Assembly (NCBI GenBank): GCA_024643545.1
Contig: JAHEMR010000006.1
Coordinates: 1 to 64,000 of the forward strand
DNA from: Crocinitomicaceae bacterium
GTDB lineage: Bacteria > Bacteroidota > Bacteroidia > Flavobacteriales_D > Crocinitomicaceae
Direction of reading: 5' to 3'
DNA length: 64,000 nt
Within the stretch, counting starts at the first letter, position 1. The number at the start of each line of letters is the position of its first letter. A program made the translations under genes and the position numbers. This document shows positions 8,325 through 30,980 of the stretch, in pieces. The notes under the pieces were generated by a model. The model was not told the origin of the DNA. It saw only the letters and a list, made by a program, of their open reading frames with translations, and made no database searches.

Positions 8325-9068
8325 ATGAAAAAAATTATTTGTTGTTTGATTATAATGATCAATCTAAACGCTTTTTCCCAGCAAAAACTAGAAGTTGGTG
8401 TAGGTATTTCTAATTTTGGGCAAATTGAAAATCCGATTTCAAATTTCTATAACGTAGACTATCCGAATGGATTTAATACGGATAAATACATTAATAAGAA
8501 CAATTCAACCGTTTTAAAATACAATGTAAACTTTTCGTACAATTTGAACGATAGTTTGAATTTACGATTGAGATTGGGCTTCGGACTAAATGACAAGTTT
8601 AGGGTATTGGATTATCCTGCGTCGTTGACATACATTCATGAACAACAGTCTTTTGCGGAAATATGTCCTTCCATTGGCAAAGCTAAAAAATTCGGATCCT
8701 TCACCTTAAATGCAGGTTTGGAAATCCCGCTTTACTTCGTTTCAAGGTACAATTATTCGAATTATTCAGATATCAGAGATTCTTCTCTTCAAGTTACTAG
8801 TACGAATGAATCCTTGCAGCATATCGACGGTGGTTTTCTTGTTGGGATCAATCATTTTATCCATTTAAAGATGAAAGTCACAAAAAACATGAGTGTTTTT
8901 TCCGAGTTGAATTTCGGATTAATGTACGCTCATCTCGGAGGGAATTATCATGAGATCATAACATTGTCTTCTTCGGTACCGACTTCATATTCCTTTGAGA
9001 AAAGGTACACAAAATTGTTTTTTACAGCACCTCAAGTTCAATTGGGGGTGACCTTTGATTTGTTTTAA
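8325..9068 (+). CDS. Secreted protein, probable outer-membrane beta-barrel
   Basis: A 247-residue protein with a signal peptide (CCLIIMINLNAFSQ) followed by barrel-like strands: LEVGVGISNFGQI, YNVNFSYNLNDSLNLRLRLGFGL and FTLNAGLEIPLYF. The C-terminus, PQVQLGVTFDLF, matches the usual outer-membrane insertion strand with a terminal aromatic residue. Function is not recognised. The last 62 bases of this gene have a diverged second copy at 11719-11780, beyond four intervening genes, so this 3' end marks one border of an accessory block. The next gene starts 11 bases downstream. Confidence 0.6.
   Translation: MKKIICCLIIMINLNAFSQQKLEVGVGISNFGQIENPISNFYNVDYPNGFNTDKYINKNNSTVLKYNVNFSYNLNDSLNLRLRLGFGLNDKFRVLDYPASLTYIHEQQSFAEICPSIGKAKKFGSFTLNAGLEIPLYFVSRYNYSNYSDIRDSSLQVTSTNESLQHIDGGFLVGINHFIHLKMKVTKNMSVFSELNFGLMYAHLGGNYHEIITLSSSVPTSYSFEKRYTKLFFTAPQVQLGVTFDLF
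9007..9068 (+). repeat. 3' end of barrel gene, direct repeat of 11719-11780
   Basis: The last 62 bases of the barrel gene recur in the same orientation at 11719-11780. The first 28 bases are identical, and by hand count about 55 of 62 match. Most differences are synonymous or conservative in the shared reading frame. Confidence 0.8.
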
Positions 9069-9787: not shown

Positions 9788-9802
9788 AAACAAATCCAAG
9801 AA

Positions 9803-10897: not shown

Positions 10898-10952
10898 AAG
10901 GAAGTTCTCAGTGGTGCGTATTCCACTTTGAATTGTTATTTTTATTCAAACT

Positions 10953-11718: not shown

Positions 11719-11780
11719 ACACAAAATTGTTTTTTACAGCACCTCAGGTTCAATCTGGGATCACGTTTGATCTGTTTTAA
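11719..11780 (+). pseudogene. Ghost 3' end of a barrel gene related to 8325-9068
   Basis: Read in frame from 11721 this gives TKLFFTAPQVQSGITFDLF and a TAA stop. The living gene at 8325-9068 ends TKLFFTAPQVQLGVTFDLF. Nothing upstream continues the homology as a reading frame, so only the last 20 or so codons remain. Differences are CAA/CAG, ACC/ACG and TTG/CTG (silent), V/I (conservative) and L/S, so both copies diverged under selection before this one was truncated. It may be the remains of a tandem paralogue, or a donor allele left by recombination. Confidence 0.75.
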
Positions 11781-11913
11781 CGGAATAATAAAACAAGTGC
11801 AGTTTACAAAAATCAAGCACTGCAAAATTTTTTCTTCACAAATCCTTCATGTTCTTAAAACTGATTTAACCTTGGATTTACATTGCAATCACATCTGAGG
11901 GGTAATCTTGCAT

Positions 11914-13046: not shown

Positions 13047-14407
13047 TAGGAAATAGCTGAAATAACGTCGTAACGTGAAACAATGTGAAACTTACCGTTT
13101 TCCAATTGCACCAAAACAGCTGGCGTTTGCTTGTTGATCAACTTGCAAATGTCCTCAATGTGCGTTGCGTGATTGACCACTGGAAAAGGCGCGTTCATGA
13201 TGGATGAAATCGGTGCGTCGCGCAAAGCAGGATCTTCCACCAATAATTGGTACACATGACTGTCGTCAATAGACCCAACAAAAACGCCATCTTTCATCAC
13301 CGGAATTTGACTAATTCCGTAGTTGCGCATTTTCGCAATGGCATGAGAAACCAATTCCTCCGCATACAATGAAACCAATGGTTTATCTGCATGTTTCGCA
13401 ACCAAGTCCGCTGCCGTTAGGATGTTTTCTTCTAAGAATCCGCGTTCACGCATCCAATCGTCGTTGAATATTTTTCCAATGTAACGACTTCCATGGTCGT
13501 GGAATAATACCACCACCACATCATCTGCAGTCAATTGGTCTTTTAATTGGATCAATCCTTTGATCGCCGAACCAGCAGAGTTCCCAACGAAAATCCCTTC
13601 TTCTCGGGCAATTCTTCTCGTGTAAACCGCCGCATCTTTGTCGGTTACTTTTTCAAATAAATCGATTACGTCAAAATCAACGTTTGCAGGAAGAATGTCC
13701 TCGCCAATTCCTTCCGTAATGTATGGATAGATTTCGTTTTCATCGAAAATTCCTGTTTCCTTGTACTTTTTAAATACGGATCCATAGGTATCAATTCCCC
13801 AAATCTTGATGTTCGGATTTTTCTCTTTCAAGTATTTTCCAACGCCAGAAATAGTTCCACCGGTTCCTACTCCCACAACGAAGTGTGTGATTTTTCCTTC
13901 TGTTTGTTCCCAAATCTCGGGACCAGTTGATTCGTAATGTGCCTGACGGTTCGATAAATTATCGTATTGATTTACGTACCAAGAATTTGGAATCTCTTGT
14001 GCCAAACGACGAGATACGGAATAGTATGAACGTGGATCCGTTGGCTCAACCGCTGTCGGACAAACCACTACTTCTGCACCAACTGCACGAAGAATGTCCA
14101 TTTTCTCTTTGGATTGTTTGTCGTTCAAGACACAAATCAACTTATATCCTTTAATGATTGCTGCTAATGCCAGTCCCATTCCTGTATTTCCGGAAGTTCC
14201 TTCGATGATGGTTCCACCTGGATGTAACAATCCTGCTGACTCCGCGTCTTCAATCATTTTTACCGCCATTCTATCTTTGACAGAATTTCCCGGATTCGTT
14301 GTTTCTACTTTCGCGAAAACTTGAGCGGGAATATCAGCGGTTAATTTATTGATGCGCACCAATGGCGTATTCCCAATGGTTTCGAGGATGTTATTGTAGA
14401 CTTTCAT
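13046..14407 (-). CDS. Cystathionine beta-synthase (pyridoxal-phosphate enzyme with two CBS domains)
   Basis: A 453-residue enzyme joining serine and homocysteine to cystathionine (transsulfuration), or acting as a cysteine synthase. The start is placed at MKVYNNILETIGNTPLVR; the open frame upstream is not coding. The pyridoxal-phosphate lysine is K44 in NPGNSVKDR. EGTSGNTGMGLA and GVGTGGTISG are the substrate and phosphate-binding loops. Residues from about 330 to the end form two CBS domains (LVSHAIAKMRNYGISQIPVM and a second unit), as in the regulated beta-synthases rather than plain CysK. The downstream BtuF-like gene overlaps by one base. About 100 bases separate the start from the divergent hexosaminidase gene. 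Confidence 0.9.
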   Translation of the reverse strand: MKVYNNILETIGNTPLVRINKLTADIPAQVFAKVETTNPGNSVKDRMAVKMIEDAESAGLLHPGGTIIEGTSGNTGMGLALAAIIKGYKLICVLNDKQSKEKMDILRAVGAEVVVCPTAVEPTDPRSYYSVSRRLAQEIPNSWYVNQYDNLSNRQAHYESTGPEIWEQTEGKITHFVVGVGTGGTISGVGKYLKEKNPNIKIWGIDTYGSVFKKYKETGIFDENEIYPYITEGIGEDILPANVDFDVIDLFEKVTDKDAAVYTRRIAREEGIFVGNSAGSAIKGLIQLKDQLTADDVVVVLFHDHGSRYIGKIFNDDWMRERGFLEENILTAADLVAKHADKPLVSLYAEELVSHAIAKMRNYGISQIPVMKDGVFVGSIDDSHVYQLLVEDPALRDAPISSIMNAPFPVVNHATHIEDICKLINKQTPAVLVQLENGKFHIVSRYDVISAIS

Positions 14408-14506
14408 TCGTTGATTTTGGACAAAGTTAATGAATTGAACGAAGGCAGGAAGGTAATTTTCAATTCGAAGATCAAAAAGCAGACAAAAAACACCTAATTT
14501 TAAAGA

Positions 14507-16720: not shown

Positions 16721-16723
16721 CGA

Positions 16724-17560
16724 ATGTGGCAATCCGTTGAAAAACCTGTTCATCGTGGGAAATGGCGAAAATTCTTCGGGAAAGAATACTTTATTCTAAA
16801 ACGAAAATGGCATTGGTTAAGCAGCAAACATTCCTTCGCACAAAAACGAATTCATTCGGGATTGGAACATGAATACATGAAGCACAAGTCCATGTTGTTG
16901 CGACCATTGAAGGACGTAGACATGATTTTGCAACACAACAAAGTGAAAAATTTAGAACTTGCTATCGGACACATCAACGGGATTGTCATTCGTCCAGGAG
17001 AAACGTTTTCCATTTGGAAATTGGTTGGACGCCCAACAAAAAGCAAAGGATACCTAGACGGACTCACCTTGGAAAACGGTCAAATCGGGCGAGGAGTCGG
17101 CGGTGGACTTTGTCAACTTGGAAACTTACTGTATTGGATGGCACTGCATTCGCCTTTAGAAATCACAGAGCGTTGGAGACATGGATTCGATGTGTTTCCA
17201 GATATTAATCGAAGCATTCCCTTTGCTTGTGGCGCAACACTTTCGTACAATTATGTCGATTTACAACTTAGAAATTCCACGCAACAAGATTTCGTCATTG
17301 AAGTGTGGTTGGACAAAAGTCATTTAAATGGTCGTCTGACTTCCAACTTTCCTTCAGATTGCACATATCAAGTGATCGAAACGGATCATCAAATTCAACA
17401 ACAATGGTGGGGTGGCTACACAAGACACAATCGAATTTGGAAAGAATCCACGCACAAAGATTCCGGAGAACAAAAAATGGATTTAGTCACCGAAAACAAT
17501 GCGATTATGATGTACAATCCCTTACTCGAAGGTTCGAGGGATGACTCGACGAACTCTTAA
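16724..17560 (+). CDS. VanW family protein
   Basis: A 278-residue protein with the VanW core: GIVIRPGETFSIWKLVGRPT, then YLDGLTLENGQIGRGVGGGLCQLGNLLY, then HSPLEITERWRHGFDVFPD. VanW was first seen in vancomycin-resistance clusters, but its biochemical role is not known and most members have nothing to do with resistance. No signal peptide is apparent and the N-terminus is basic. It begins four bases after the hexosaminidase stop, so the two are likely co-transcribed. No other van-type gene is nearby. Confidence 0.85.
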   Translation: MWQSVEKPVHRGKWRKFFGKEYFILKRKWHWLSSKHSFAQKRIHSGLEHEYMKHKSMLLRPLKDVDMILQHNKVKNLELAIGHINGIVIRPGETFSIWKLVGRPTKSKGYLDGLTLENGQIGRGVGGGLCQLGNLLYWMALHSPLEITERWRHGFDVFPDINRSIPFACGATLSYNYVDLQLRNSTQQDFVIEVWLDKSHLNGRLTSNFPSDCTYQVIETDHQIQQQWWGGYTRHNRIWKESTHKDSGEQKMDLVTENNAIMMYNPLLEGSRDDSTNS

Positions 17561-17593
17561 CGTATATCAAGCGATTGCAAAACCAAACACTCG

Positions 17594-17601
17594 TACCTTT
17601 G
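17594..17601 (+). promoter_or_regulatory. TAnnTTTG promoter element close to a start codon
   Basis: TACCTTTG matches the Bacteroidota -7 consensus TAnnTTTG and ends four bases before the ATG at 17606. A weak upstream ATTG lies at 17574-17577, with a spacing of 16 bases, shorter than usual. If active, transcription would begin at or next to the start codon. Confidence 0.45.
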
Positions 17602-17605
17602 TTAC

Positions 17606-18490
17606 ATGGAACGAAAAAATTTCATTAAACTCATTGGATTATCTACCATAGGACTTAGCATGACAAGTTTAGCTGATTTAAATCGCATATCACACGGATT
17701 TTCAAAAACACCGAAAATGCCCGTTTTATTTGTTGGACATGGAAGTCCGATGAATGCCATTGAAGAAAACGACTTCGTAAAAGGATTTCGAACGGCAGCA
17801 AGTTCCATTCCGAAACCAAATGCGATTCTCTGTATTTCCGCCCATTGGTTAACCAAAGGAACAAAAGTCACAGCGATGTCTATGCCGCAAACGATTCACG
17901 ATTTCGGTGGATTTCCTCAAGCTTTGTTTGATGTGCAATATCCCGCTCCCGGAAGTCCAGAATTGGCGAAAGAAGCACAGACATTATTGGCGCCAACCCA
18001 TGTCGAATTAGATGATGCGTGGGGATTGGATCACGGAACATGGAGCATCCTAAAACATTTTTATCCAGAAGCGGATATTCCTGTCATCCAACTGAGCATC
18101 GATTACGGAAAGCCGATGCAATGGCATTTTGATTTGGCCAAACAATTACAATCCTTGCGTGAAAAAGGAGTCCTGATTATAGGTAGTGGAAACATCGTTC
18201 ACAACCTTGGCCGCGTCGACTTTGGTCGCATCAACGACATTGGTTACGGATACGATTGGGCAATGGAAGCTAGGACGTACATCAATCAACATTTGGTGGA
18301 CGGAAATTTCCAAGCCATCATCGATTACCAAAAAGGACCCAGCGCCATGCAACTCGCTGTTCCAACGCCAGACCACTACATTCCCCTACTCTATTCCCTT
18401 GGATTAAAAACCAAAGACGAAGAATTGAGCCTGTTCAACGACGCACTTTTAGCCGGAAGTTTGAGTATGACATCTGTCCGAATTGGATAG
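17606..18490 (+). CDS. ygiD: 4,5-DOPA-extradiol-dioxygenase-like protein (YgiD/DODA family)
   Basis: A 294-residue member of the class III extradiol ring-cleaving dioxygenases. Landmarks are [14 protein letters not shown] (metal-site histidine), [29 protein letters not shown] and [12 protein letters not shown]. The family cleaves DOPA-like catechols using a non-heme divalent metal; the true substrate in bacteria is uncertain. The first 22 residues ([19 protein letters not shown]) look like an export or anchor signal without the twin arginine, as is common in Bacteroidota versions. The gene is 45 bases downstream of the VanW gene and has its own candidate promoter. Confidence 0.85.
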
Positions 18491-18541: not shown

Positions 18542-18555
18542 CAAAAACTTTTTTT

Positions 18556-19377
18556 ATGGCTACGCGTAATTGGCAAACAATTAAAAAATACGAAGACATT
18601 AAATTCGAGTTCTTCGAAGGAATTGGTAAAATCACGATTAATCGTCCGAGAGTATACAATGCATTTCGTCCGGAAACGAACTTTGAAATGTTAGATGCGA
18701 TGAACATTTGTCGTGAGCGTCCAGACATCAATGTCGTGGTATTTACCGGAGAAGGCGACAAAGCATTCTGTTCAGGTGGAGATCAAAACGTCAAAGGTGT
18801 TGGTGGATACATTTCTGAAAATGGTGTTCCGCGTTTAAATGTTTTGGATTTACACAAAGCCATTCGTTCCCTGCCTAAACCAGTGATTGCCATGGTGAAT
18901 GGGTATGCGATTGGTGGTGGACACGTACTTCACGTTGTGTGTGATTTAACGATTGCCTCAGAAAATGCGATTTTTGGTCAAACTGGACCGAAAGTGGGAA
19001 GTTTCGACGGTGGATTCGGTTCATCATATTTAGCAAGACACGTCGGACAGAAAAAAGCACGAGAAATTTGGTTCTTGTGTAATCAATATACTGCAGAAGA
19101 AGCAGAGAAAATGGGCATGGTCAACAAAGTTGTTCCATTTGACCAATTAGAAGATACCGTTGTTGAATGGTCACGCACCATCATGAAAAGAAGTCCATTG
19201 GCAATCCGCATGATCAAACGTGCGATGAATGCTGAGTTGGACGGTCAACATGGATTAATGGAATTGGCTGGCGATGCTACCCTACTCTATTACTTAACCG
19301 AAGAAGCACAAGAAGGAAAACATGCCTTCTTAGAAAAAAGAGACCCTGATTTTTTACAATACCCTAAATTCCCATAA
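18556..19377 (+). CDS. menB: 1,4-dihydroxy-2-naphthoyl-CoA synthase
   Basis: A 273-residue crotonase-fold enzyme that closes the second ring of menaquinone from o-succinylbenzoyl-CoA. Residues include [51 protein letters not shown] and [18 protein letters not shown], all typical of MenB rather than a generic enoyl-CoA hydratase, as is the full-length C-terminal [18 protein letters not shown]. It is cytoplasmic. The only quinone-type electron-transfer machinery in the window is the nuo operon far downstream. pepD follows after two bases, so they are probably co-transcribed. Confidence 0.95.
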
Positions 19378-19379
19378 AT

Positions 19380-20816
19380 ATGTCAGTAAGAGAACTACAA
19401 CCAAGTGCACTATGGAATCACTTTGCTGATTTAAATGCCGTTCCACGTCCATCTAAAAAAGAAGAACGCGTGCGTCAATTCATGGTGGATTTCGGGAAAT
19501 CCTTGAACTTGAAAACCGCAGAAGATGCCATTGGAAACGTGTACATCTACAAAGCAGCAACTGCCGGAATGGAAAATCGTCCAACGGTTATTCTTCAAGC
19601 GCATTTGGACATGGTACATCAAAAAAATGCAGATACCACGTTCGATTTTGATCAACAAGGAATTGAGATGTTGGTCGATGGAGATTGGGTACGTGCAAAC
19701 GGAACAACTTTAGGTGCTGACAACGGAATCGGAGTGGCTGCGATTATGGCGATTTTGTCCTCGACAGATGTTCCACATCCTGCCATTGAAGCATTTTTTA
19801 CCATCGATGAAGAAACTGGAATGACTGGTGCCATCAAAATGGATCCAAGTTTTTTAAGTGGAACCATTTTATTGAACATCGACACCGAAGATGACGATGA
19901 ACTTTCCATTGGTTGTGCCGGAGGAATAGACACGAATACGACTTACACCTACGGACAAGTTCCAGTGGAAGGAGAAACGATGAAACTTTCCATTCGTGGA
20001 TTATTGGGTGGGCATTCCGGAATGGACATCGATAAAGGTCGTGGAAATGCCAATAAATGGATGGCGAGAATCCTTTGGGAAATGAAACAAGTGACGAACA
20101 TCCAATTGATTTCATTCGATGGAGGAAGTTTGCGCAATGCCATTCCTCGTGAAGCGACAGCCGTTATTTCCAGTACAGATTTAGCCAAAGTGAAAGCCGT
20201 TTTCGCAGAGGTATCCGCAACATTGAAAGAAGAATATAGCAGCATTGAACCACATTGTCAATTTGAGCTTCAAGCGACAACGACAACTGAACAAGCAATG
20301 GCAACGAGCGATTTTACAAAAATCATCTCTGTACTTTGTTCCGTTCACAATGGTGTTTACAGAATGAGTCCAGACATCGTTGGATTGGTGGAAACCTCTT
20401 CGAGTTTGGCGCGAATCATCATCAAGGACGGAAGTTTTGTTTCACAATCTTTGCAACGAAGCAGTGTGGAATCAACGAAGCGCGAAGTGTGCATGGTGAT
20501 GCGCAGTGCCTTTGAAAATGCTGGATGTCAGGTCGAACAAACAGGCGATTATCCAGGATGGAAACCAAATCCAAATTCAGGAGTGTTACGCTTAATGGAA
20601 TCCTTGTATGTGGAAATGTATCAAGAAACACCAAAAGTGAAAGCGTGTCATGCTGGATTGGAATGTGGAATCCTTGGAAAACAATTACCAGGAGTCGACA
20701 TGATTTCATTCGGACCAAACATTCGCGCGGCACACTCTCCAGATGAAAAAGTACAAATCTCCTCCGTACAGAAGTTTTGGAACTATTACCTAGAAACACT
20801 TAAACGCATTGCTTGA
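19380..20816 (+). CDS. pepD: Aminoacyl-histidine dipeptidase (M20C)
   Basis: A 478-residue metallopeptidase that splits Xaa-His and other dipeptides in the cytoplasm. The zinc ligands and active-site residues are visible: H75 and D77 in QAHLDMVHQ, D114 in LGADNGIG, E144-E145 in IDEETGMTGA, and a later CHAGLECGILG and AHSPDE, which carry the last ligands. The dimerisation (lid) domain lies between residues of about 195 and 400 (RGLLGGHSGMDIDKGRGNAN). Length is typical of PepD. It starts two bases after menB. Confidence 0.93.
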   Translation: MSVRELQPSALWNHFADLNAVPRPSKKEERVRQFMVDFGKSLNLKTAEDAIGNVYIYKAATAGMENRPTVILQAHLDMVHQKNADTTFDFDQQGIEMLVDGDWVRANGTTLGADNGIGVAAIMAILSSTDVPHPAIEAFFTIDEETGMTGAIKMDPSFLSGTILLNIDTEDDDELSIGCAGGIDTNTTYTYGQVPVEGETMKLSIRGLLGGHSGMDIDKGRGNANKWMARILWEMKQVTNIQLISFDGGSLRNAIPREATAVISSTDLAKVKAVFAEVSATLKEEYSSIEPHCQFELQATTTTEQAMATSDFTKIISVLCSVHNGVYRMSPDIVGLVETSSSLARIIIKDGSFVSQSLQRSSVESTKREVCMVMRSAFENAGCQVEQTGDYPGWKPNPNSGVLRLMESLYVEMYQETPKVKACHAGLECGILGKQLPGVDMISFGPNIRAAHSPDEKVQISSVQKFWNYYLETLKRIA

Positions 20817-20863
20817 TGCTTCTCAATGAAGCCTCATCCCAATAAAATCCTTATTTTTAGCAC

Positions 20864-22075
20864 ATGAATTTTCAATTAAATACGATCGAAGAAGCCATTA
20901 TCGAAATCCAACAAGGACGCGTTGTCATTGTCGTGGATGACGAAGGACGTGAAAACGAAGGCGACTTTTTAACAGCAGCAAGAAACGCAACACCAGAAGT
21001 CATCAATTTCATGGCGACTCACGGACGCGGACTCATTTGTGCTCCCATCAGTGAAGAACGATGCGACGCATTGGGACTAGAAATGATGGTGCGCAATAAT
21101 TCAGCTGCCTACGAAACTCCATTTACAGTTAGCATCGATTTAATTGGACACGGATGTACAACTGGAATCTCCGCAAGCGATCGTTCTAAAACGATTTTAG
21201 CCTTGATTGACCCAACAATCCGACCAGAAGAATTAGGTAAACCAGGACACATTTTCCCATTGCGTGCACGTAAGGGCGGCGTTTTGCGTCGTGCAGGACA
21301 CACAGAAGCTGCAGTAGATTTATCCCGTTTAGCTGGATTCGAAGAAGCTGGAGTCATCGTTGAAATCTTGAACGAAGATGGAACAATGGCGCGTGTACCA
21401 AGTTTAATTGAAATCGCGAAGAAATTCGACTTAAAAATCGTTTCCATTGAGGATTTGATCAAATACCGTGTCGAACACGAGTCTTTGATTGAAGAACAAG
21501 TTTCTGTTCACATGCCTACGGAATTCGGTGATTTCCAATTGCGCGCATTCAAAGACACGAGCAATGACCAAGATCATTTAGTGTTAACAAAAGGTACATG
21601 GACGAAAGATGAACCCGTATTGGTTCGCGTTCACTCCTCTTGTTTGACAGGTGACATTTTTGGTTCTTGCCGATGTGATTGTGGACCACAATTGCACAAA
21701 GCGATGGAAGTCATCGAGAAAGAAGGAAAAGGAGCGATTGTCTATATGAATCAAGAAGGAAGAGGAATCGGACTTTTGAATAAATTGAAAGCCTACAAAT
21801 TGCAAGAGGAAGGATTAGACACTTACGAAGCAAATGAGAAACTTGGTTTCAAAGCAGATGAAAGAGATTACGGAATTGGTGCGCAAATCATTCGTTCGAT
21901 CGGAATTTCTAAAATGCGCTTGATGTCCAACAATCCGAAGAAACGCACCGGTTTAATTGGCTACGGATTAGAAATCGTAGAAAATGTAGCGTTAGAAGTA
22001 GCCAGCAATGTCCACAATCAACATTACTTGGAGACGAAGCGCGATAAAATGGGTCACAACCTAAAATTAGACTAA
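20864..22075 (+). CDS. ribBA: Bifunctional 3,4-dihydroxy-2-butanone-4-phosphate synthase / GTP cyclohydrolase II
   Basis: A 403-residue fusion that makes both precursors of riboflavin. Residues 1 to about 200 are the RibB part, with [22 protein letters not shown] and [16 protein letters not shown]. Residues of about 205-403 are the RibA part, with [20 protein letters not shown] (three zinc cysteines), [10 protein letters not shown] and [11 protein letters not shown]. Both active sites look intact, although some bacteria carry an inactive RibA half. The gene stops directly against the ATG of the ABC ATPase gene with no gap. A TATTTTTA element sits five bases before the start. Confidence 0.95.
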
Positions 22076-22731: not shown

Positions 22732-23487
22732 GTGAGTCCAACTGAACTGCACGAATTTCTCGATTTCAAAGCGGCTCATTATGAGCACCCACGTTTTCTA
22801 GAAGAAGATCCGATTCAACTCCCCCACCGCTTTATACAAAAAGAAGACATTGAAATTGTCGCTTTCATCGTTTCCATGATTGCTTGGGGCAACAGAAAAA
22901 GCATTGTCAAAAGTGGCGAACGTGTGTTGTCCATCATGGGAAATTCGCCCTATGATTACGTCATGTCCTACAAAGGTGAAATTCCAAGCAACTTTGTCCA
23001 CCGAACCTTTAACAACGAAGACCTGGGTGGATTCTTTTCCTGTTTGAATCACGTTTACACGCAGCACGGCGGACTTGAATCCGCATTCTCCAAACAAGTT
23101 CCTGAAGACAACTTAAAAGAACGCATTTGTGCTTTTCGAGCACGATTTTTCCAAGGAGAACACCTGTCACGCACACAAAAGCACGTTTCGAATCCAGCTT
23201 CAGGTTCAGCGTCCAAAAGATTGATCATGTTCCTCCGCTGGATGGTTCGTTCAGCCGACAAAGGCGTAGATTTCGGACTTTGGAAGAGCATTTCATCCTC
23301 CGAACTCATGATTCCATTGGATGTCCACACCGGCAATGTCGCCCGCAAACTCGGACTCCTCACCCGCACACAAAACGATTGGAAAACAAACGAAGAACTG
23401 ATCGAACTGTTTAGAAGCTACGACGATCAAGATCCCGCAAAATACGATTTCGCCTTATTTGGTTTGGGAGCGTATGAGGGGTTTTGA
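22732..23487 (+). CDS. TIGR02757 family (DUF2400) protein
   Basis: A 251-residue protein of a family widely conserved in Bacteroidota and some other phyla. It is related by sequence to nucleic-acid-acting helix-hairpin-helix glycosylase-like folds but has no proven function. Visible conserved parts are DPIQLPHRF, IVAFIVSMIAWGNRKSIVKSG, RLIMFLRWMVRSADKGVDFGLW and PLDVHTGNVARKLGLL, ending FGLGAYEGF. The start is GTG at 22732, five bases after the lolD stop. The last 22 bases recur at 28873-28894, so its 3' end borders an accessory block. Confidence 0.85.
   Translation: MSPTELHEFLDFKAAHYEHPRFLEEDPIQLPHRFIQKEDIEIVAFIVSMIAWGNRKSIVKSGERVLSIMGNSPYDYVMSYKGEIPSNFVHRTFNNEDLGGFFSCLNHVYTQHGGLESAFSKQVPEDNLKERICAFRARFFQGEHLSRTQKHVSNPASGSASKRLIMFLRWMVRSADKGVDFGLWKSISSSELMIPLDVHTGNVARKLGLLTRTQNDWKTNEELIELFRSYDDQDPAKYDFALFGLGAYEGF
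23464..23485 (+). repeat. 22-base 3' end of TIGR02757 gene, direct repeat of 28873-28894
   Basis: TTGGGAGCGTATGAGGGG followed by TTTT is identical at both sites, and the coding frame is the same. Upstream the similarity continues for about nine more bases with a few silent or conservative changes. Confidence 0.85.
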
Positions 23488-23497
23488 AATCTTGTTA

Positions 23498-23518
23498 AAT
23501 CGATTGTGAAAATCGATT
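23498..23518. repeat. Paired 8-bp palindrome AATCGATT
   Basis: AATCGATT occurs at 23498-23505 and again at 23511-23518 with GTGAA between. Each copy is its own reverse complement, so the two can pair as an 8-bp hairpin with a 5-base loop. It sits just past the TIGR02757 stop, at the left edge of an accessory block. There is no T-run after it, so a simple terminator is unlikely. Confidence 0.45.
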
Positions 23519-23601
23519 GGTTAAATTGGCCTTTAAATTGTAAATTTCTTTAACTTTAAGACAATCAATCATTACCATTTTGTTTCAACCGACATGAACC
23601 T

Positions 23602-25149
23602 ATGAAAAAAAGTTTTCTTATTTCCTTTTTGATACTTGTTTGTTCCAACGTAATTTGTCAGGTTCAACAAAACACCAATGTTATTTTTCAGGCGCCTCAA
23701 TACTTCGATTTAACTTTCGGAACGAACGGAGTAGTGCTTTTTGATATTCCTGAAAATCCAAATTACACCTATGGAATTGCAACTCAAAGTGACGGAAAAA
23801 TCTTAGCTGTCACAACGAGCAACAACGTTCAGTATTATTTGATGCGTTTAAATGCCGACGGCTCGCTTGATTCAACTTTCGGTCAAAATGGCATCATTGA
23901 AGATACCTTAATTGGTGAAGTGTTAGGTTCCGACGTCCAAGTTGATGAACAAGATAGAATAATTATTACTGGATATGTATATCATGGATTTGGACAAGAG
24001 GATTTATTTGTTGTTCGAATGTTGCCTGACGGAACTTATGACAATAGCTTCGGGGTAAATGGTGTGTTTATTGCCTACACCGCAGTGCTGCCAGCATATA
24101 AACATAGCGCCGGAAAACAAATTAAGTTACTACCCGACGGAAGTATCATTGTAGGTGGTAATTTTTCATACCACTCAAATAATTTTGATGTTGCGGTTTA
24201 CAAAATTACACCAGATGGTCAGTTTGATCAATCTTTTGGTCAGAATGGTTATGTTTATTACCAAATAAGCGGCCAGAACTCGCTTATCGATATAAATATT
24301 CAAACTGATGGAAAAATTCTTCTAACAGGAAGTGCTTTCCTTCCGATAACAGTTCCGGTACTCAGATTAAATCCAAATGGAAGTTTAGATACAACATTTG
24401 GCAACAATGGTATGGCTTTGCATGATTTTATGCTAGAACACCAAATTGGTGTTGCTGTCAAACAACTTTCAAACCAGAAAATACTTGTTGCAGGAACAAA
24501 AGGTCCTACAAATTCTCAACTGGATATATTCATTTATAGACTTGACGAAAATGGAATTATCGATTCTAGTTTTGGCAATAATGGGTTTGCATTTTTTGAT
24601 AGCGGTTATTCTGAAGGTTTAAATTCCATGCATTTGTTACCGAATGGAGATATTCTTCTATTAGGTCAGGACTCTCATGGTAATGGAGATTTTCTACTCG
24701 TGTGTTTTGATAGTACAGGAATGCTGAAAACAAATTTCTTTCATAATGGAAAATTGAATATTGATATAAATGGGAATTTAGAAGGAATGAGTGCGTCATG
24801 CATTCAAAATGACGGTAAAATCTTATTTGTAGGATTGACATCATCGCCATTTTGGACGTCAGCATACATATCTTTTGTTCGTTTAAATTTGTCCAATACG
24901 TCCTTAAATCAATTAGCAGAAATGGAGAGTCATTTTAAGGTTTTTCCCAATCCTGCCTCAGATCAACTCACCATTTCTTTAATAAATAACCATACAGACA
25001 AGAATTGTTCGGTAGTAGATAATTCAGGAAAAGAGGTAATGGAATTCAACGTTTCGGAAGGGGATAATACTATTGATATAACCAATTTGGATAAGGGGAT
25101 TTATAACGTTAAAATTGATTCAAAAAATATAAAATTTATCAAAAATTAA
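23602..25149 (+). CDS. Secreted delta-60-repeat protein with T9SS type A sorting domain
   Basis: A 515-residue exported protein. A signal peptide (residues 1-20) precedes about seven delta-60 repeats of about 55 residues with the core SLDSTFGQNG, QFDQSFGQNG, SLDTTFGNNG or IIDSSFGNNG, each followed by DGKILVAG-type strands. These repeats likely form a beta-propeller. The last 75 residues are a T9SS type A sorting domain, with VFPNPASDQLTISL, VVDNSGKEVMEF, LDKGIYNVKI and FIKN. It is the first gene of the block between the TIGR02757 gene and its ghost 3' end. It should be surface-attached. Confidence 0.85.
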   Translation: MKKSFLISFLILVCSNVICQVQQNTNVIFQAPQYFDLTFGTNGVVLFDIPENPNYTYGIATQSDGKILAVTTSNNVQYYLMRLNADGSLDSTFGQNGIIEDTLIGEVLGSDVQVDEQDRIIITGYVYHGFGQEDLFVVRMLPDGTYDNSFGVNGVFIAYTAVLPAYKHSAGKQIKLLPDGSIIVGGNFSYHSNNFDVAVYKITPDGQFDQSFGQNGYVYYQISGQNSLIDINIQTDGKILLTGSAFLPITVPVLRLNPNGSLDTTFGNNGMALHDFMLEHQIGVAVKQLSNQKILVAGTKGPTNSQLDIFIYRLDENGIIDSSFGNNGFAFFDSGYSEGLNSMHLLPNGDILLLGQDSHGNGDFLLVCFDSTGMLKTNFFHNGKLNIDINGNLEGMSASCIQNDGKILFVGLTSSPFWTSAYISFVRLNLSNTSLNQLAEMESHFKVFPNPASDQLTISLINNHTDKNCSVVDNSGKEVMEFNVSEGDNTIDITNLDKGIYNVKIDSKNIKFIKN

Positions 25150-25333
25150 ATTCAAGAACAGCAAGTATTTCTTTGTGCTTTTTTTGAATTTTAAATTGCC
25201 AAAATCCTATCCGTTGCTGTTTTGTTTTCTATTTCCTCAATTACACGATTGAAAAAAACATACCTTTACTAAACACAACAATTTACGGTTACTAATGGGT
25301 TTAAGAAATTAGTATTCCTTTCATGCCATTTTT

Positions 25334-26749
25334 ATGAAATACTGCCTGATCATCATTTCCCTCGTTCTGTCCCAATTGCTTAACGCACAGAAAGGAAACA
25401 CCTTCACCGTTGGAATGAGTTCGGGAATAGGAATGACCAAGAATAAAACCATTGGTGAAAACAGACCGTTGGACAATCTTTCGAATATTCATACCTCGCT
25501 AAATGCAAGCTACGGAATACAACTTCCTAAAAACCTTCGTTGCGACATCAATTTTGGCCTTGAAAACATCAGTTATTTCCCTTATCCAGCATACATAGGT
25601 AGGTCTTCCGGATCTATTCTACTCAGTAATCTAGGTGCTGGATTACACTATAAAATTCCCGTTAAGAAAAACTTTTTCTCCCTTGGGCTTAACGGTGGTG
25701 TTAGATTTATTAGAAATGCTGAATCTAGCTACTCTACTTACTCAGATCAGTCTTATTCAAAAACCATCTATACATTTGAAAAGTCTATTAATCCTTTTAT
25801 ATCGCTGCAATTGGGTTATGAATTCCCATTGAAAAATAAAAATTTGCTCGGTATTGATCTAAGTTTCAAAGGGTCTTTTCATCCCATTTACTCCATGGAC
25901 TACAATTTTAGTGACTTCGTTTCTTTTTCCAATGGCAGCTACTCGTATTCAGGAAACAGTGTCCATTTAGGCATTCATTACACCTGGACGAAAAACAAAA
26001 AAAATGCTGAAATAGAAACCTTACTGTTGGATAGTGTAAATCGCAAAGAAGCAAAAAAAATAGTCGCGATAAAAAATCGTTTTCAATCTTCGAAAGCTGT
26101 ATTAATTCAACTGCATCAAGGTGGATTTATGAATCAATCCAAGATTTTAAATAATACGGATAATGTATTCAAAAACGCCACAGGACCAAGTTCAAGTACG
26201 CGATTAAATGCTACCATTGGATGGAAAAATAATTGGTCTTTTCAACCCGGCGTTTCCATTGATTCGTATTGGCTGTGGTTGCGAAAAAATGGCTCGGGTT
26301 TAAGTGGGTCTAGTCTTTTCAATTTATTTACGGTTGATTTAGGCATGCAAAGAAGGATGCTTTCCTTTCCAAAAACGAATAGGTATTTGTGCAATGTAAA
26401 CGGAGGGATTTCATTCTCCTACGTAAGTGGTAGCGGAAGTGGAAGCGGATCTGGTACGTCCTTCGACTATTATACGAATCAAGTCATTTTAACCTACAAC
26501 TATTCCTACCATTACAACAACAAACTATTTCCTGCGGCATATCTTGGAATAAGTAAAGACCTTCGATTAAGCAATCACATTCTGTTCACCATTGCTTACC
26601 GACATCAGTTTGGACTTAGCAGAGGAATGATCATCCCTTTTAGCTATACCGTGACAAATCAAGCACCGGTTTCAACTCAGATCAGAGTGAATGGAAATGC
26701 AAATTGCATCAGTTTTGGTTTGGCTTATCGTTTTAATAATAAAGGATAA
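25334..26749 (+). CDS. Secreted protein, probable outer-membrane beta-barrel
   Basis: A 471-residue protein with a signal peptide ending LLNAQ. It has repeated amphipathic strands (YGIQLPKNLRCDINFGLENI, LHYKIPVKKNFFSLGLNGGV, ISLQLGYEFPLK) in two groups separated by a lysine-rich linker (residues about 215-260). This suggests two barrel-like halves or a barrel plus a plug. It ends CISFGLAYRFNNKG. A low-complexity serine-glycine run near residue 365 (SGSGSGSGSG) probably forms a flexible loop. No function is recognised. Confidence 0.55.
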   Translation: MKYCLIIISLVLSQLLNAQKGNTFTVGMSSGIGMTKNKTIGENRPLDNLSNIHTSLNASYGIQLPKNLRCDINFGLENISYFPYPAYIGRSSGSILLSNLGAGLHYKIPVKKNFFSLGLNGGVRFIRNAESSYSTYSDQSYSKTIYTFEKSINPFISLQLGYEFPLKNKNLLGIDLSFKGSFHPIYSMDYNFSDFVSFSNGSYSYSGNSVHLGIHYTWTKNKKNAEIETLLLDSVNRKEAKKIVAIKNRFQSSKAVLIQLHQGGFMNQSKILNNTDNVFKNATGPSSSTRLNATIGWKNNWSFQPGVSIDSYWLWLRKNGSGLSGSSLFNLFTVDLGMQRRMLSFPKTNRYLCNVNGGISFSYVSGSGSGSGSGTSFDYYTNQVILTYNYSYHYNNKLFPAAYLGISKDLRLSNHILFTIAYRHQFGLSRGMIIPFSYTVTNQAPVSTQIRVNGNANCISFGLAYRFNNKG

Positions 26750-26790
26750 TATCCTCGGACTCTAAATAGAATTTTTGCTTAACTGGAATT

Positions 26791-27666
26791 ATGAAATTTT
26801 ACTTAATCATTTTGTTTCTAGTGCTATCAAATCTTGTCAGTGCGCAAATGACCTCCGATTATGCAGTTTACCAAAAGCAGCACCAGACACTTGGTTGCCA
26901 AATTGTTGATTCCATGATTTTTTCTACTGTACTTCATGAACTTCTGGCGCTAGACACCAATCAGTTTGATGCTAATTTGGACTTATATCACCGAGATTTA
27001 TCCCAGGCATATGCTTGCACCTGGATATTTTCAAAGGATTCCGCTGACCTCCAAAATGCGGTGCTTCAAATTAGGCACATTAAAAATTTATCCAATTTGG
27101 ATCATTATAATATTGCGCATTATCTCAATTGTCTTAATGCCCTAAATGAATGTGAAGAGATCATTAAACATGTGGATCTTTATCTTTCGATGACACCTAC
27201 TGAAGAACAATTTCCCAATGACCAAATCCATAAGATTAAAAACAAATGCTTATATCGTCACATCACCGATTACAAAGAATACCGTAAAACACAAGTCAAG
27301 TTAACTTGTACACCTCAAGATTCAGCAACAATTGTCGATAAGCTATATGACTTACTTTTACTTGACACCACTCAATTCACCACCAATCTCGATTGGTATT
27401 ACCAGGATTTAGGAATGGCTTATTACAAAAGTTTCAACGTGTTAAGCAAAGATTCCATTTTATACGAAAAATCAATCGCCGCTTACCTCAAACAAAAAGA
27501 ACTAAATTCAAACGATTATTGGAATATCATGCACCTATACTTTATTCTTCATGATTGTGAGAATGGCGAAAAGTATTTAGCCTTGTACAAAAAGAACACT
27601 CCAAGAGAATTTTACAAGAACAATAAGGAACAAATTTCAAGAATTCGAAACCGGTGTAAGGGGTGA
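26791..27666 (+). CDS. Secreted protein made of two homologous halves
   Basis: A 291-residue protein with a signal peptide (ending NLVSAQ). Residues of about 35-155 and 165-290 are clearly related. The first half has LALDTNQFDANLDLYHRDLSQAY and the second LLLDTTQFTTNLDWYYQDLGMAY; each continues through a SKDS motif, a helical part and a conserved cysteine near the end (KNKC, RNRC). The pattern of paired helices suggests TPR-like units, formed by an internal duplication. No partner or ligand can be deduced. It lies in the same block as the barrel gene before it, 41 bases downstream. Confidence 0.55.
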   Translation: MKFYLIILFLVLSNLVSAQMTSDYAVYQKQHQTLGCQIVDSMIFSTVLHELLALDTNQFDANLDLYHRDLSQAYACTWIFSKDSADLQNAVLQIRHIKNLSNLDHYNIAHYLNCLNALNECEEIIKHVDLYLSMTPTEEQFPNDQIHKIKNKCLYRHITDYKEYRKTQVKLTCTPQDSATIVDKLYDLLLLDTTQFTTNLDWYYQDLGMAYYKSFNVLSKDSILYEKSIAAYLKQKELNSNDYWNIMHLYFILHDCENGEKYLALYKKNTPREFYKNNKEQISRIRNRCKG

Positions 27667-27708
27667 TTACTCATAATTCTAAATAAAAAATTATCAATAC
27701 CAATAATT

Positions 27709-28860
27709 ATGAAAGCTATTTTATCTTTTTTCTTTTTATCGCTCACATTAAGTGCATATTCACAAAATAAAACGAATCTAAAAGTCATCGAGACGGGAAT
27801 TGAAACGTTTAAAATGACTGACTCTGGACAACCTGAAAGTGAAAAATATTGGACGGTTTCGCCTCAGACAAAAATAGATACTTATATATCAGATGGCCTT
27901 CTAAGTAACCATAACGTAGTAACATTCTATACCGATAAGGAAACATTTGAAGTGAAGGTTTCTTTGAAAAAACCTATCTATGATTTCATCATTCTTTATA
28001 AAGGTGATTCCTGTTTTACACGTGTGCATTATAATCAAGTTCCAGATTACTTGGATACCTTACGAAAAGGCAAAAAATACAATCTTACTGAAAATAGCGA
28101 ACTCCCAAAATTCACTTATCAGGATATGAATCATCCCGAGTAAGTATCCTTACGCAAAAAGTATAATCTCGATTCGATTGCTGGTACTGCGAGCGAAGTT
28201 CAACAAATGATCAATTTAATGCATTGGGTGCATAATACAATCCAACACGATGGACAACATGATATTCCACAAATAAAAAATGCTAATCATATGATTCAGG
28301 CATGTAAGGACACTATTAGAGGATTGAATTGTCGTGGATTAGCCATTACTCTGAATGAATGTTATTTAGCAATGGGTTTTAAATCTCGTTATGTAACATG
28401 CATGCCACGTGAGTTGGAATTTGAAGATTGTCACGTAATCAATATGGTATATTCAAATGAGTTAAAAAAGTGGATTTATTTGGACCCAACGAATAATGCA
28501 TATATAATGGATGAAAAAGGAACTTTATTGAGTATCGAAGAAGTTCGTCAAAGAATGATTGATAAAAAACAATTAATATTAAATCCAGATGCTAATTGGA
28601 ATAATCTTGAAGCAACAATTCCTGATTTTTATTTGACATTTTATATGGCTAAAAATTTATATAGAATTCAGTGTCCAATTTCAAGTGAATACAATTTTGA
28701 AACTGACGCTCCAAATAAAACTGTAGAGTACATTGAATTATTACCACTAAATGCATTAAATCGTGTTCCTTCAAAAAAAGAATTTTCAAAAGGGGAAACT
28801 AATTCTAAGTTTATAAATTACAATACAAATGATCCTATAAGATTTTGGGCTAAACCATAG
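27709..28860 (+). pseudogene. Transglutaminase-like protein gene broken by one in-frame TAA stop
   Basis: Two frames in the same phase, 27709-28140 and 28144-28860, are separated only by TAA at 28141-28143. Read through, they give about 382 residues: a signal peptide (SLTLSAYSQ), a beta-rich N-terminal domain, then a transglutaminase-like domain. The catalytic triad lies downstream of the stop: cysteine at 28330-28332 in NCRG, histidine at 28432-28434 in DCHVIN, and aspartate at 28483-28485 in YLDPTN. Sequence either side of the stop reads smoothly (NHPE, stop, VSLRKKYNL). Family members are exported papain-fold enzymes. A single nonsense change, a sequencing error or readthrough are the alternatives. 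An internal start would lack the signal. Confidence 0.75.
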
Positions 28861-28896
28861 GTGCTATATGGATTGGGAGCGTATGAGGGGTTTTAA
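28861..28896 (+). pseudogene. Ghost 3' end of a TIGR02757-family gene
   Basis: Read in frame this gives VLYGLGAYEGF and a TAA stop, against ALFGLGAYEGF and TGA at the end of the living gene at 22732-23487. Changes are mostly silent (GGT/GGA, TTA/CTA) or conservative (F/Y), so it behaves like a diverged allele. It follows the broken transglutaminase gene directly. The last 22 bases before the final A residues are identical to 23464-23485. Confidence 0.8.
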
Positions 28897-28922
28897 CTCA
28901 ACTCCGGAAACGGAATCAATTC
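28893..28922 (-). pseudogene. Ghost 3' end of the lipoprotein gene 30549-30980
   Basis: On the minus strand this reads ELIPFPELS and TAA; the living gene ends ELIPFPELN and TAG. The first 25 bases (28898-28922) are identical to 30554-30578. Its stop overlaps the stop of the neighbouring ghost of the TIGR02757 gene in a shared TTAA (28893-28896). So these bases preserve a junction where the two genes met tail to tail. Confidence 0.8.
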
Positions 28923-28971
28923 ACAACGAAAATAGATTGATCTAAACAAGATAATGAATGATAATCAATCC

Positions 28972-29664
28972 TCACGAAATTTTCCAGGACTTATTTAGCC
29001 GATAAAAACCTATACCCAGGATTACGAGTAAAATAACCATGGCAAAGGTTAACCCAGCAATTGGGAAAGCGAACAGGAAAACAATGGAATAAAGCAAGTA
29101 ACTTATTTGCCGTAAACGAAATTGGTCTTGATACAGCACTTTTTTAGGTCGTAACATTAGAAGGAATCCAAGAAAGGAAAAACCTGTGAAATAGCAATAA
29201 AGTGGATAGCCTTCCATTCCTGAATCGGACCGCCATAAAATGAAGGATTGAATGAAACAAAGCACAACGGAAAGTAGAACCATCAATATAAATCCCATCG
29301 TTTTTTTATCGACAATTTCCTCCCTTTTTATTAATTCATTGGATAACAAAGGAAAGTCAAATTGTTCTTGGGATACAGGGAGTGTTTGTAAACGATTTCG
29401 AAACATCAGATCAAAGTAATTCAAGGGAAATGCTTTTCGAAATGACAGAAAAACCAAAAAATGATTTTCATTAACAGGTAAATTTCCCTCACTTAATACT
29501 TGCTTGTGGTAATCCAATTTTAGCTGAAGATCCTTTAATTCTTCGTCGGGAATACGTACAGATTGATTTGACGACAGGACATATGCATGTCCATTTCTTG
29601 TCCTTGCTTGTACACTTCTTGCTGAATAAAGTGATCCTGGAGGAATAAATTTAAATTGTGCCAT
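28972..29664 (-). CDS. Membrane protein with four predicted helices
   Basis: A 230-residue protein. The N-terminal 120 residues are soluble, with FIPPGSLYSARSVQARTRNG and LDYHKQVLSEGNLPVNENH. Residues of about 122-230 are hydrophobic with four predicted segments, among them GFILMVLLSVVLCFIQSFILW and FLFAFPIAGLTFAMVILLV. There is no signal peptide and no motif I recognise. It lies 17 bases after the gene at 29682-30143 on the same strand, so the two are probably co-transcribed. They sit inside the block between ghost and living 3' ends of the lipoprotein gene. Confidence 0.5.
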   Translation of the reverse strand: MAQFKFIPPGSLYSARSVQARTRNGHAYVLSSNQSVRIPDEELKDLQLKLDYHKQVLSEGNLPVNENHFLVFLSFRKAFPLNYFDLMFRNRLQTLPVSQEQFDFPLLSNELIKREEIVDKKTMGFILMVLLSVVLCFIQSFILWRSDSGMEGYPLYCYFTGFSFLGFLLMLRPKKVLYQDQFRLRQISYLLYSIVFLFAFPIAGLTFAMVILLVILGIGFYRLNKSWKIS

Positions 29665-29681
29665 ATAACAGAATATATGAA

Positions 29682-30143
29682 TTAAAAATTACTTAAAAAT
29701 CCAACATCGTCAACAGAAACAACCAAAGGTTCGTTAGCCTTTGACTGAATGAGCACCAGATTCAATTTGCTTTTCGACATTACTTTCACCGATCCAAAAC
29801 CGTTGAAGGTATAGTTTCCATAATATCCGAGCAAGCCATGAATACCCATGTTTCTTTTCAATTCTGAAAAGTCAATTTTATCTATTTTTTCAATGTCCGT
29901 CAATGAAATAGATATATTACCAGCCACTCGTTGAAAAACAAGTTCAGATTCATTCCTATAAATTCTCCATGGAATAAGTATCAACGAAGCTCCTATTGAA
30001 ATAAGAAAAAGGATACAAATGCTGAGAATAAAGGGAATTTGAGATTTTGTAAAGGCCAAAAGTGAAATGAGCACAACATAAACGACAGGTATGATGAGAA
30101 CCGTTTGTAGATCGTAACTAGATGGAATGACATTTTTCGACAT
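29682..30143 (-). CDS. Membrane protein, possible bacterial PH-like domain
   Basis: A 153-residue protein with two transmembrane segments near the start (VLIIPVVYVVLISLLAF and FILSICILFLISIGASLI). A cytosolic part follows whose SELVFQRVAGNISISLTDIEKID and later VMSKSKLNLVLIQ look like the strands of a bacterial PH-like domain. The fold assignment is weak. It is in the same direction as, and close to, the four-helix membrane protein and the 64-residue protein, which suggests a small membrane-protein operon. Confidence 0.5.
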   Translation of the reverse strand: MSKNVIPSSYDLQTVLIIPVVYVVLISLLAFTKSQIPFILSICILFLISIGASLILIPWRIYRNESELVFQRVAGNISISLTDIEKIDKIDFSELKRNMGIHGLLGYYGNYTFNGFGSVKVMSKSKLNLVLIQSKANEPLVVSVDDVGFLSNF

Positions 30144-30184
30144 GTAATAACGTGTAGCGAGATAAAACTATGCAGCCAGAAAAT

Positions 30185-30379
30185 TTAGTCTCTATTTGGT
30201 GTAATCAGTTTTTTATTTACCATTCTAATTAATCCAGTTACAGTAATAAATGCAAATCCAACAACTAACTTGTAGTTTTGGAAGATATTTCCAGGAAATA
30301 CGTCAGTCAACGCATTGATTAAAATCACTAAGAAAATCATCCAGATTATTGCTGAAACGATCAAAGTTGTCTTTTTCAT
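30185..30379 (-). CDS. Small membrane protein, 64 residues
   Basis: A short protein with two hydrophobic segments (residues 5-27, beginning TLIVSAIIWMIFLVIL, and about 38-55, GFAFITVTGLIRMV) and a basic end (NKKLITPNRD). The ATG start is preceded by A/T-rich sequence. It begins the group of three genes on the minus strand. No family is recognised. The 169 bases between it and the lipoprotein gene hold nothing I can identify. Confidence 0.45.
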   Translation of the reverse strand: MKKTTLIVSAIIWMIFLVILINALTDVFPGNIFQNYKLVVGFAFITVTGLIRMVNKKLITPNRD

Positions 30380-30548
30380 GGAGTAAAATTTAATATCTTC
30401 TAGGACTTTAATTGTTCTTTTGTTTTACCTAGTAATAAAACAGCATTACTTACACAATCAAATTTAACGATAAAAGATCAATTCGTCACAATCGTAAACA
30501 ATTAATTTTGAAGGAACTAATTCGAATTATTTAACGCTCCGTTAAAAA

Positions 30549-30980
30549 CTAATTCAACTCCGGAAACGGAATCAATTCCATGGCATTGGTGTAATCAGAG
30601 CCTTCCAAGGGAAAAAGTACTAATTTATTCTCATCCATGAATTCAAACTGAAATTCACGTTTCTCACCAGGGAATCGTAAGGTTACATACTGATTTTCAT
30701 GATCAAATTCGAGTTTACCGTATTGTCCTTTTCCGGAAGCTAACTTTTTTAGATTCGTGAGAAAGCACGTTCCAGATTGGTAAAAAACAATGACTTCTTG
30801 TTGCAGTGGTTGCTTAATTGTTACTGCGCCATCGGGCGAAATGGTTTTCTCAACCATCCACACTTTGCTGTTACCATCTGTGAATCCTTGGGTAAAATCT
30901 ACCTTGTCCGTGCGTATGCTACCCGTACAAGAAGCAAACAAGAATACAATCAGGAAATTAAAAAAGTAACTTTTCTTCAT
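30549..30980 (-). CDS. Probable lipoprotein of unknown function
   Basis: A 143-residue protein with a lipoprotein signal (FFNFLIVFLFASC, cysteine at about residue 18) and a mature domain of about 125 residues whose alternating strands (EFDHENQYVTLRFPGEKREFQFEFMD) suggest a small beta-barrel or lipocalin-like fold. No known family. Its start overlaps the end of the gene at 30958-31632 by 23 bases, so the two are translationally coupled. Its 3' end has a diverged ghost at 28893-28922, marking the right border of an accessory block. Confidence 0.6.
   Translation of the reverse strand: MKKSYFFNFLIVFLFASCTGSIRTDKVDFTQGFTDGNSKVWMVEKTISPDGAVTIKQPLQQEVIVFYQSGTCFLTNLKKLASGKGQYGKLEFDHENQYVTLRFPGEKREFQFEFMDENKLVLFPLEGSDYTNAMELIPFPELN
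30554..30578 (-). repeat. 25-base 3' end of lipoprotein gene, direct repeat of 28898-28922
   Basis: TCAACTCCGGAAACGGAATC plus AATTC on the plus strand is the same at both sites and in the same orientation. Past 30578 the sequences differ completely. Confidence 0.85.

What the first reader, a model, noticed from the sequence alone, without database searches (positions are those of the whole stretch)
28861..28922. Fossil of a tail-to-tail gene junction left between two accessory blocks
These 62 bases hold the last 11 codons of a TIGR02757 gene (VLYGLGAYEGF, TAA) running into the last codons of a lipoprotein gene on the other strand (ELIPFPELS, TAA), with the two stops sharing TTAA. The living genes end at 23487 and start their 3' end at 30549, about 7 kb apart. 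So two blocks, 23488-28860 and 28923-30553, appear to have been inserted on either side of this junction. Each is bordered by a direct repeat of one gene's 3' end (22 and 25 identical bases). The ghosts differ from the living ends by silent or conservative changes, as expected for alleles of functional genes. I infer insertion by recombination that carried in a donor's version of the flanking gene end, with no integrase in view.
Basis: partly seen in the sequence, partly recalled or inferred. Interest (0 to 1): 0.75.

Follow-up and report, generated by a model that had tools for sequence, protein, structure and literature searches.

The report
Trapped remnant of an old gene junction
Between two stretches of acquired genes, this bacterium keeps a 59-base scrap of the spot where two neighbouring genes once met end to end, a neat fossil of gene acquisition by a mechanism of a known kind.

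Summary
The remnant is 59 nt (28864-28922): 33 nt of the TIGR02757 gene (T) 3' end and 26 nt of the lipoprotein gene (L) 3' end, stops sharing TTAA. Four close relatives keep the living tail-to-tail junction; the best matches 56 of 59 bases. In the genus, T and p224 (the gene behind L) lie convergent within 600 nt in 46 of 52 genomes with both on one contig; 6 have larger inserts. Left of the remnant, where alignable, the window is 82-100% identical to Ww7 and Ww9, against 65-88% from L onward. A tree of T unites the three; the right flank rejects that. Living T is mostly the imported allele; the ghost looks like the recipient's. Relatives hold further gene-end stubs, one matching a living junction elsewhere; the window holds a second stub. 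Pfam found no integrase in the block proteins. Best explanation: serial imports with one long homologous anchor and one short or illegitimate joint. A single-crossover circle is not excluded.

The parts
22732..23487 (+). living TIGR02757/DUF2400 gene (T); allele class shared with Ww7 and Ww9; stop TGA
   Evidence: NCBIfam TIGR02757 223.6 bits; T tree clade 100/100; class I at 79 of 90 diagnostic sites, class II at 9, neither at 2
23455..23487 (+). living T 3' end that is repeated in the ghost (33 nt)
23488..28863 (+). block A: delta-60-repeat protein with T9SS sorting domain (23602-25149), 471-aa protein (25334-26749), 291-aa protein (26791-27666), transglutaminase-like gene with an in-frame stop (27709-28860)
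   Evidence: G+C 34.3% against 42.3% at 12.0-22.7 kb and 39.5% at 31.0-41.0 kb
28864..28896 (+). ghost of T 3' end (LYGLGAYEGF, TAA)
   Evidence: 1 of 33 mismatches to the G072 T end, 4 of 33 to the living T; left joint set by comparison with G092
28893..28922 (-). ghost of lipoprotein 3' end (ELIPFPELS, TAA), stop overlapping T' in TTAA
   Evidence: the stub|block B joint is shared with G002 and G092
28923..30472 (-). block B: 230-aa (28972-29664), bPH_5-domain 153-aa (29682-30143) and 64-aa (30185-30379) genes; G+C 33.0% over 28923-30548
   Evidence: the 230-aa protein is in 3 of 86 genus genomes, the window's own included
30473..30534 (+). probable decayed 3' relic of an MntA-like nucleotidyltransferase gene
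   Evidence: 45 of 60 identical to the MntA-like gene end of G095, 0 of 500 shuffles as good; not significant against the G092 and Ww7 copies (140 and 181 of 500)
30549..30980 (-). living lipoprotein gene (L)
9007..9068 (+). 3' end of a 247-aa gene (8325-9068) that has a second, similar ghost
11719..11780 (+). second 3'-end ghost in the window: 62 nt, ends in TAA
   Evidence: 88.7% identical, E 5e-16; living empty junction not found

Best explanation
The 59 nt are what is left of the recipient chromosome's own T|L junction, trapped between two imports. On the left, DNA carrying another T allele and block A recombined through long homology upstream (shown: shared tract and T allele class; which lineage was donor is not shown) and its far end was joined inside the last 33 nt of the recipient T (the joint is shown; its illegitimate nature is inferred from the lack of overlap at 28863/28864). 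On the right, block B with an L-side arm came in, meeting the recipient L within its last 29 nt; the stub|B joint is shared with two relatives, so here the join most likely used the short stub repeat as homology (inferred). Each import supplies an intact copy of the flanking gene, so both genes stay whole and short 3' stubs remain as scars. This is one-sided homologous insertion of the kind called homology-facilitated illegitimate recombination, repeated at one convergent junction; uptake of DNA by transformation is possible but not shown. A corollary (inferred) is that crossover between a stub and its living gene end would delete a block and restore the junction.
For: Living tail-to-tail T|L sharing TTAA in 4 close genomes, 3, 5, 7 and 8 of 59 mismatches to the ghost, the living ones differing from each other by 2-7. 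T and p224 convergent within 600 nt in 46 of 52 genus genomes. Window vs Ww7/Ww9 82-100% per 500 nt, mostly 86-97, from ~9 kb (Ww7) or ~12 kb (Ww9) to 27.67 kb where alignable, then 65-88% from L onward. Background from two 20-kb samples against five relatives: 15 of the 22 matches over 1 kb lie at 77-82%, all 22 at 73-89%. T tree unites win, Ww7, Ww9 at 100/100; right flank p285+PyrD rejects it, p-AU 1.4e-4. In G092 the same scar type: its MNT-L' ghost matches the living MNT|L junction of G095 at 94.5% over 127 nt, and the two direct-repeat copies around block B in G092 are different linker forms, so not a target-site duplication. MNT 3' stubs of other lengths in Ww77 and G015. A second 3' ghost in the window. 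No integrase or transposase among the block proteins searched. ComEC-type competence domain in 10 of 10 genomes searched (a weak point, E. coli has it too).
Against: At the last two diagnostic sites of T (720 and 738) the living T bears class II states, and at 738, the one inside the ghost, that is the ghost's state, although 79 of 90 sites are class I: a crossover or conversion in or beside the short repeat would fit better than a simple end joint. For block B the left joint is not new in the window. L shows no sign of coming from a G092-like donor. Some stretches left of the ghost do not align to Ww7 or Ww9 (one 500-nt bin at 17.0 kb, one more for Ww7 at 10.0 kb, and the first gene of block A). 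For the second stub no relative with the empty junction was found. The tg|T' joint is seen in one assembly only.
Confidence: 0.65

Rival explanations
1. Single-crossover (Campbell-type) integration of circles that carry a block plus a short gene-end repeat: a circle with block A and the T 3' end, and one with block B and [MNT 3' end-L 3' end], each integrates by one crossover in the short repeat and leaves it at both edges.
For: The layout of G092 (MNT-L'|B|MNT stub-L) and of the window (T|L'|B|MNT stub-L) is what one crossover with such a circle would give; living T turns to class II states at its last two diagnostic sites, one inside and one just outside the 33-nt repeat.
Against: Needs crossover in 29-33 nt; block A comes with a long shared upstream tract and T allele, which a circle does not explain; no circle was seen.
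Confidence: 0.17
2. The remnant formed in another lineage and the window received the whole arrangement by ordinary two-sided exchange.
For: The region is mosaic across species, and block B with L' is shared by three genomes.
Against: Of 86 genus genomes, only the window's own and the four with living junctions show T and L ends joined at E <= 0.001 (more distant genomes would not be found by DNA).
Confidence: 0.1
3. Site-specific integration at gene 3' ends by an integrase now lost.
For: Blocks are edged by short direct repeats of gene 3' ends, as integrative elements at 3' ends are (recalled).
Against: Two unrelated target sequences side by side, variable stub lengths in relatives, repeat copies of different allele forms, no recombinase in the window's block proteins.
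Confidence: 0.03
4. Assembly or binning artefact: the contig joins two species at this spot.
For: The left part is mostly 86-97% and over 2.4 kb 100% identical to other MAGs; the tg|T' joint is unique to this assembly among those searched.
Against: No overlap is visible at 28863/28864 on which an assembler could join; the L'|B joint is in three assemblies; the same scar type recurs in relatives. Reads were not available.
Confidence: 0.05

Closest known systems
Homology-facilitated illegitimate recombination (three naturally competent species; E. coli conjugation: PMC3240628, listing and start of abstract seen)
   Same: One homologous anchor, one non-homologous joint; foreign block integrated without integrase
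   Different: Here inferred from genome comparison; two imports meet from both sides and leave a convergent junction between them
Sequential displacement of T6SS effector genes in Vibrio cholerae (PMC5361080, passages seen)
   Same: Successive insertions shift older pieces downstream, among them the 3' end of an earlier gene, and the authors suggest the same mechanism
   Different: There whole immunity genes are kept; here the stubs in the window are 30-62 nt and seem to be inert scars, one of them between convergent genes
Hotspots without recognisable mobile elements and with recombination at flanking core genes (PMC5635113, abstract and passages seen)
   Same: Accessory genes turn over between conserved flanking genes that themselves recombine often
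   Different: That model is double homologous recombination at the flanks, which by itself leaves no stubs (my inference); stubs here record one-sided or short-repeat joins

Membership tests
Homology-facilitated illegitimate recombination product | one edge in long homology shared with a donor | tested here: met
   shared tract and T allele class to the left, drop at the locus; the donor itself is not identified
Homology-facilitated illegitimate recombination product | other edge joined without homology or with a few bases | tested here: inconclusive
   block A: no overlap at 28863/28864 between the G092 and G072 sequences taken as stand-ins for donor and recipient; block B in the window: the left join sits in a 29-nt repeat; living T ends in class II states
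Homology-facilitated illegitimate recombination product | observed in a single transformation or mating event | not testable with these tools
   genome comparison only
Hotspot with recombining flanking core genes | variable gene content between conserved flanks without recognised mobile-element genes | tested here: met
   five different gene contents between T and L in six genomes; no integrase in the window blocks; G015 is an exception, with a serine-recombinase element inside T
Hotspot with recombining flanking core genes | flanking core genes show conflicting phylogeny | tested here: met
   T against p285+PyrD
Integrase-type genomic island | recombinase gene and matching attachment repeats | tested here: not met
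   no recombinase domain in the window's block proteins; the repeats of the two blocks are unrelated

The most novel reading that the evidence does not exclude
Gene-end stubs work as reusable short-homology entry and exit sites, so that integrase-free gene blocks come and go precisely at convergent gene junctions in this genus.
Probability: 0.15. Interest if true: 0.6.

Novelty: new member of a known kind. Interest (0 to 1): 0.42.

Why it matters
It is an unusually readable record of how accessory genes can enter a chromosome without a recognisable recombinase of their own: a recipient scrap trapped between two imports, with the empty site, partial states and other filled states living in relatives. 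Gene-end stubs of this sort can be searched for, so the share of hotspot turnover due to one-sided joins could be measured.

Tried and rejected
Structured RNA or terminator kept as a function: folding of 28850-28935 gave z -1.49 (plus) and -0.67 (minus), not significant. In-genome copy of the living T end: disfavoured by the allele comparison. Target-site duplication around block B: disfavoured, the two copies in G092 are different linker forms. Defence cargo: PADLOC hits only for the MntA-like protein of Ww7, none for its 328-aa neighbour or the seven window proteins given (the 64-aa protein and the first part of the broken gene were not given). MNT relic before L: in the window supported against one of three MNT copies, in G092 against two of three (14 of 500 shuffles as good for the third), in Ww7 against two of three (1 of 500 for the third), in Ww9 against none; the shuffle was a crude one of two-base blocks. 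In one search the automatic comparison of L ends was misplaced for the window, G092 and G015 (14-15 mismatches, anchored on a wrong AATTC); those three rows are not used, and the window's L repeat is taken. Partial 471-aa hits in G097 and G098 are contig edges; the one in G075 was fetched but not examined further. The spare T of the G015 element in viral contigs: 11 stretches matched, none confirmed. Literature: convergent-gene remnants 0 papers; elements with a replacement copy of their target 1 paper, on another subject. Whether the transglutaminase-like gene of G092 has the same stop was not settled: my translation was in a wrong frame.

Full report
What is there. The window's genus has 86 genomes held; the nearest named record, Ww7, is titled Crocinitomicaceae bacterium. 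The 3' ends of two genes recur together at 28864-28922: 33 nt of the TIGR02757/DUF2400 gene T (22732-23487) and 26 nt of the lipoprotein gene L (30549-30980), with stops sharing TTAA. T' and L' lie tail to tail where block A (plus strand, like T) meets block B (minus strand, like L). The 68-nt query finds three places in the window's genome: the remnant and the two living ends.

The empty site lives in relatives. In G066, G072, G074 and G084 (loci L052, L054, L053, L056; matched to the handles by contig coordinates) T ends in TAA and overlaps the stop of L, with no insert. The ghost differs from these by 7, 3, 8 and 5 of 59 bases, and they differ from each other by 2-7. Among the more distant relatives of the 40-genome search, L lies within 20 nt of T in ten (G003, G005, G008, G009, G011, G013, G016, G020, G022, G024). 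T was found in 77 of 86 genus genomes and p224, the gene behind L, in 62 of 86. Of 60 genomes with both in the lists that I used, 8 have them on different contigs and 52 on one: 22 with up to 60 nt between, 24 with 61-600 nt (room for one small gene), 6 with more; all 52 convergent. The six are G000 (window), G002 (Ww7), G061 (Ww9), G062 (Ww77), G092 and G015.

Contents of the six. Window: T-p515-p471-p291-tg-[T'L']-p230-p153-p64-L. Ww7: T-p471-p291-328 aa-MNT-[L']-p230-p153-p64-L. Ww9: T-p471-p291-L. G092: T-p471-p291-MNT 5' stub-tg-328 aa-MNT-[L']-p230-p153-p64-L. Ww77: T-p471-MNT 3' stub-L. G015: as Ww77, but with T split by a serine-recombinase element. MNT is an MntA-like nucleotidyltransferase just under the NCBIfam cut-off (57.7 against 60 bits). 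The six living T genes with an insert end in TGA, the four without in TAA, and the ghost in TAA.

Left import. Per 500 nt, the window against Ww7 and Ww9 is 82-100% identical, mostly 86-97%, from about 9 kb (Ww7) or 12 kb (Ww9) to 27.67 kb, and 65-88% from L onward. Not all of it aligns: a bin at 17.0 kb matches neither, one at 10.0 kb does not match Ww7, and the first gene of block A is in neither. Two 20-kb samples from other contigs give 22 matches over 1 kb against five relatives, 15 of them at 77-82%, all at 73-89%. A tree of T (10 rows, without G015 and G095) joins window, Ww7 and Ww9 at 100/100 on a stem of 0.28 changes per site; the right flank (p285+PyrD, 11 rows, without G084) rejects that clade (p-AU 1.4e-4; the group was chosen from the T data). 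So T and block A belong to a shared tract which ends at the ghost; the direction of transfer is not shown. The joint is sharp: G092 and the window share CCRTAGGTG after the tg gene, then the window goes on as a T 3' end while G092 does not. Against the reading: at 79 of 90 diagnostic sites the living T is class I, but the last two sites (720, 738) are class II, and at 738, the one inside the ghost, this is the ghost's state, so exchange in or beside the short repeat has probably happened.

Right block. Block B with L' on its left edge is in 3 of 86 genomes. In Ww7 and G092 L' follows an MNT gene, not T'. The G092 MNT-L' ghost matches the living MNT|L junction of G095 (127 nt, 94.5%): a second fossil with a living counterpart. 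Before the living L a decayed MNT 3' relic is probable in the window (45 of 60 identical to G095, 0 of 500 shuffles as good, but not significant against the other two MNT copies), in G092 (44 of 62, 0 of 500 for two of three copies) and in Ww7 (0 of 500 for two of three copies); Ww9 shows none. The window's L' is nearly intact, those of Ww7 and G092 are more decayed, so in the window L' probably comes from a more recent native L, joined to B inside the short repeat (inference).

Mechanism. The window's block proteins show no integrase or transposase domain (Pfam and NCBIfam; NCBIfam was not given the 153-aa and 64-aa proteins or the first part of tg). The repeat copies in G092 are different forms rather than a duplication, and stub lengths vary. 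This fits one-sided homologous insertion with a short or illegitimate second joint, described as homology-facilitated illegitimate recombination and suggested for shifted 3' pieces in T6SS arrays (PMC5361080, passages) and for dimorphic variable segments (PMC2884548, passages). Hotspots without recognisable mobile elements and with recombining flanking genes are known (PMC5635113, abstract and passages). The ComEC domain is present in 10 of 10 genomes, but the control search finds it in 10 of 14 well-known genomes, E. coli among them, so this is weak. A circle with a single crossover gives the same layout for block B and is kept as a rival.

A second scar. The window has one more: 62 nt of the end of a 247-aa gene (8325-9068) recur at 11719-11780, ending in TAA, beyond a block with three ORFs of at least 100 aa (88.7%, E 5e-16). 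The gene is in 8 of 86 genus genomes; in the loci examined no relative has it next to the gene that follows the stub. Two such scars in 64 kb hint that the process is not rare here.

Verdict. The case is clean and instructive, but the kind of mechanism is known.

Noticed in passing
L032 (G015) about 2350-17900: A serine-recombinase element with a type I restriction system splits the TIGR02757 gene around codons 163-169 and carries a complete, 55% identical TIGR02757 gene at its edge, as if bringing a spare for the gene it breaks.
   Followed up: partly
window 11719-11780 and 8325-9068: Second 3'-end ghost, 62 nt, beyond an accessory block.
   Followed up: partly
window 18549-20967: 2419 nt identical without a mismatch to Ww9, while the sampled genome background is mostly 77-82%: very recent exchange or cross-contamination of MAGs.
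   Followed up: partly
window 27709-28860: Transglutaminase-like gene with an in-frame stop at 28141-28143.
   Followed up: no
Ww9 contig G061:C8: Mosaic of identities: closest to G015 at 1-8 kb, to Ww7 at about 10-23 kb, to G092 and G074 beyond 23 kb.
   Followed up: no
window 22732-23487: T falls in two allele classes about 80% identical, each shared by species that differ more elsewhere, so T itself seems to be often exchanged.
   Followed up: partly
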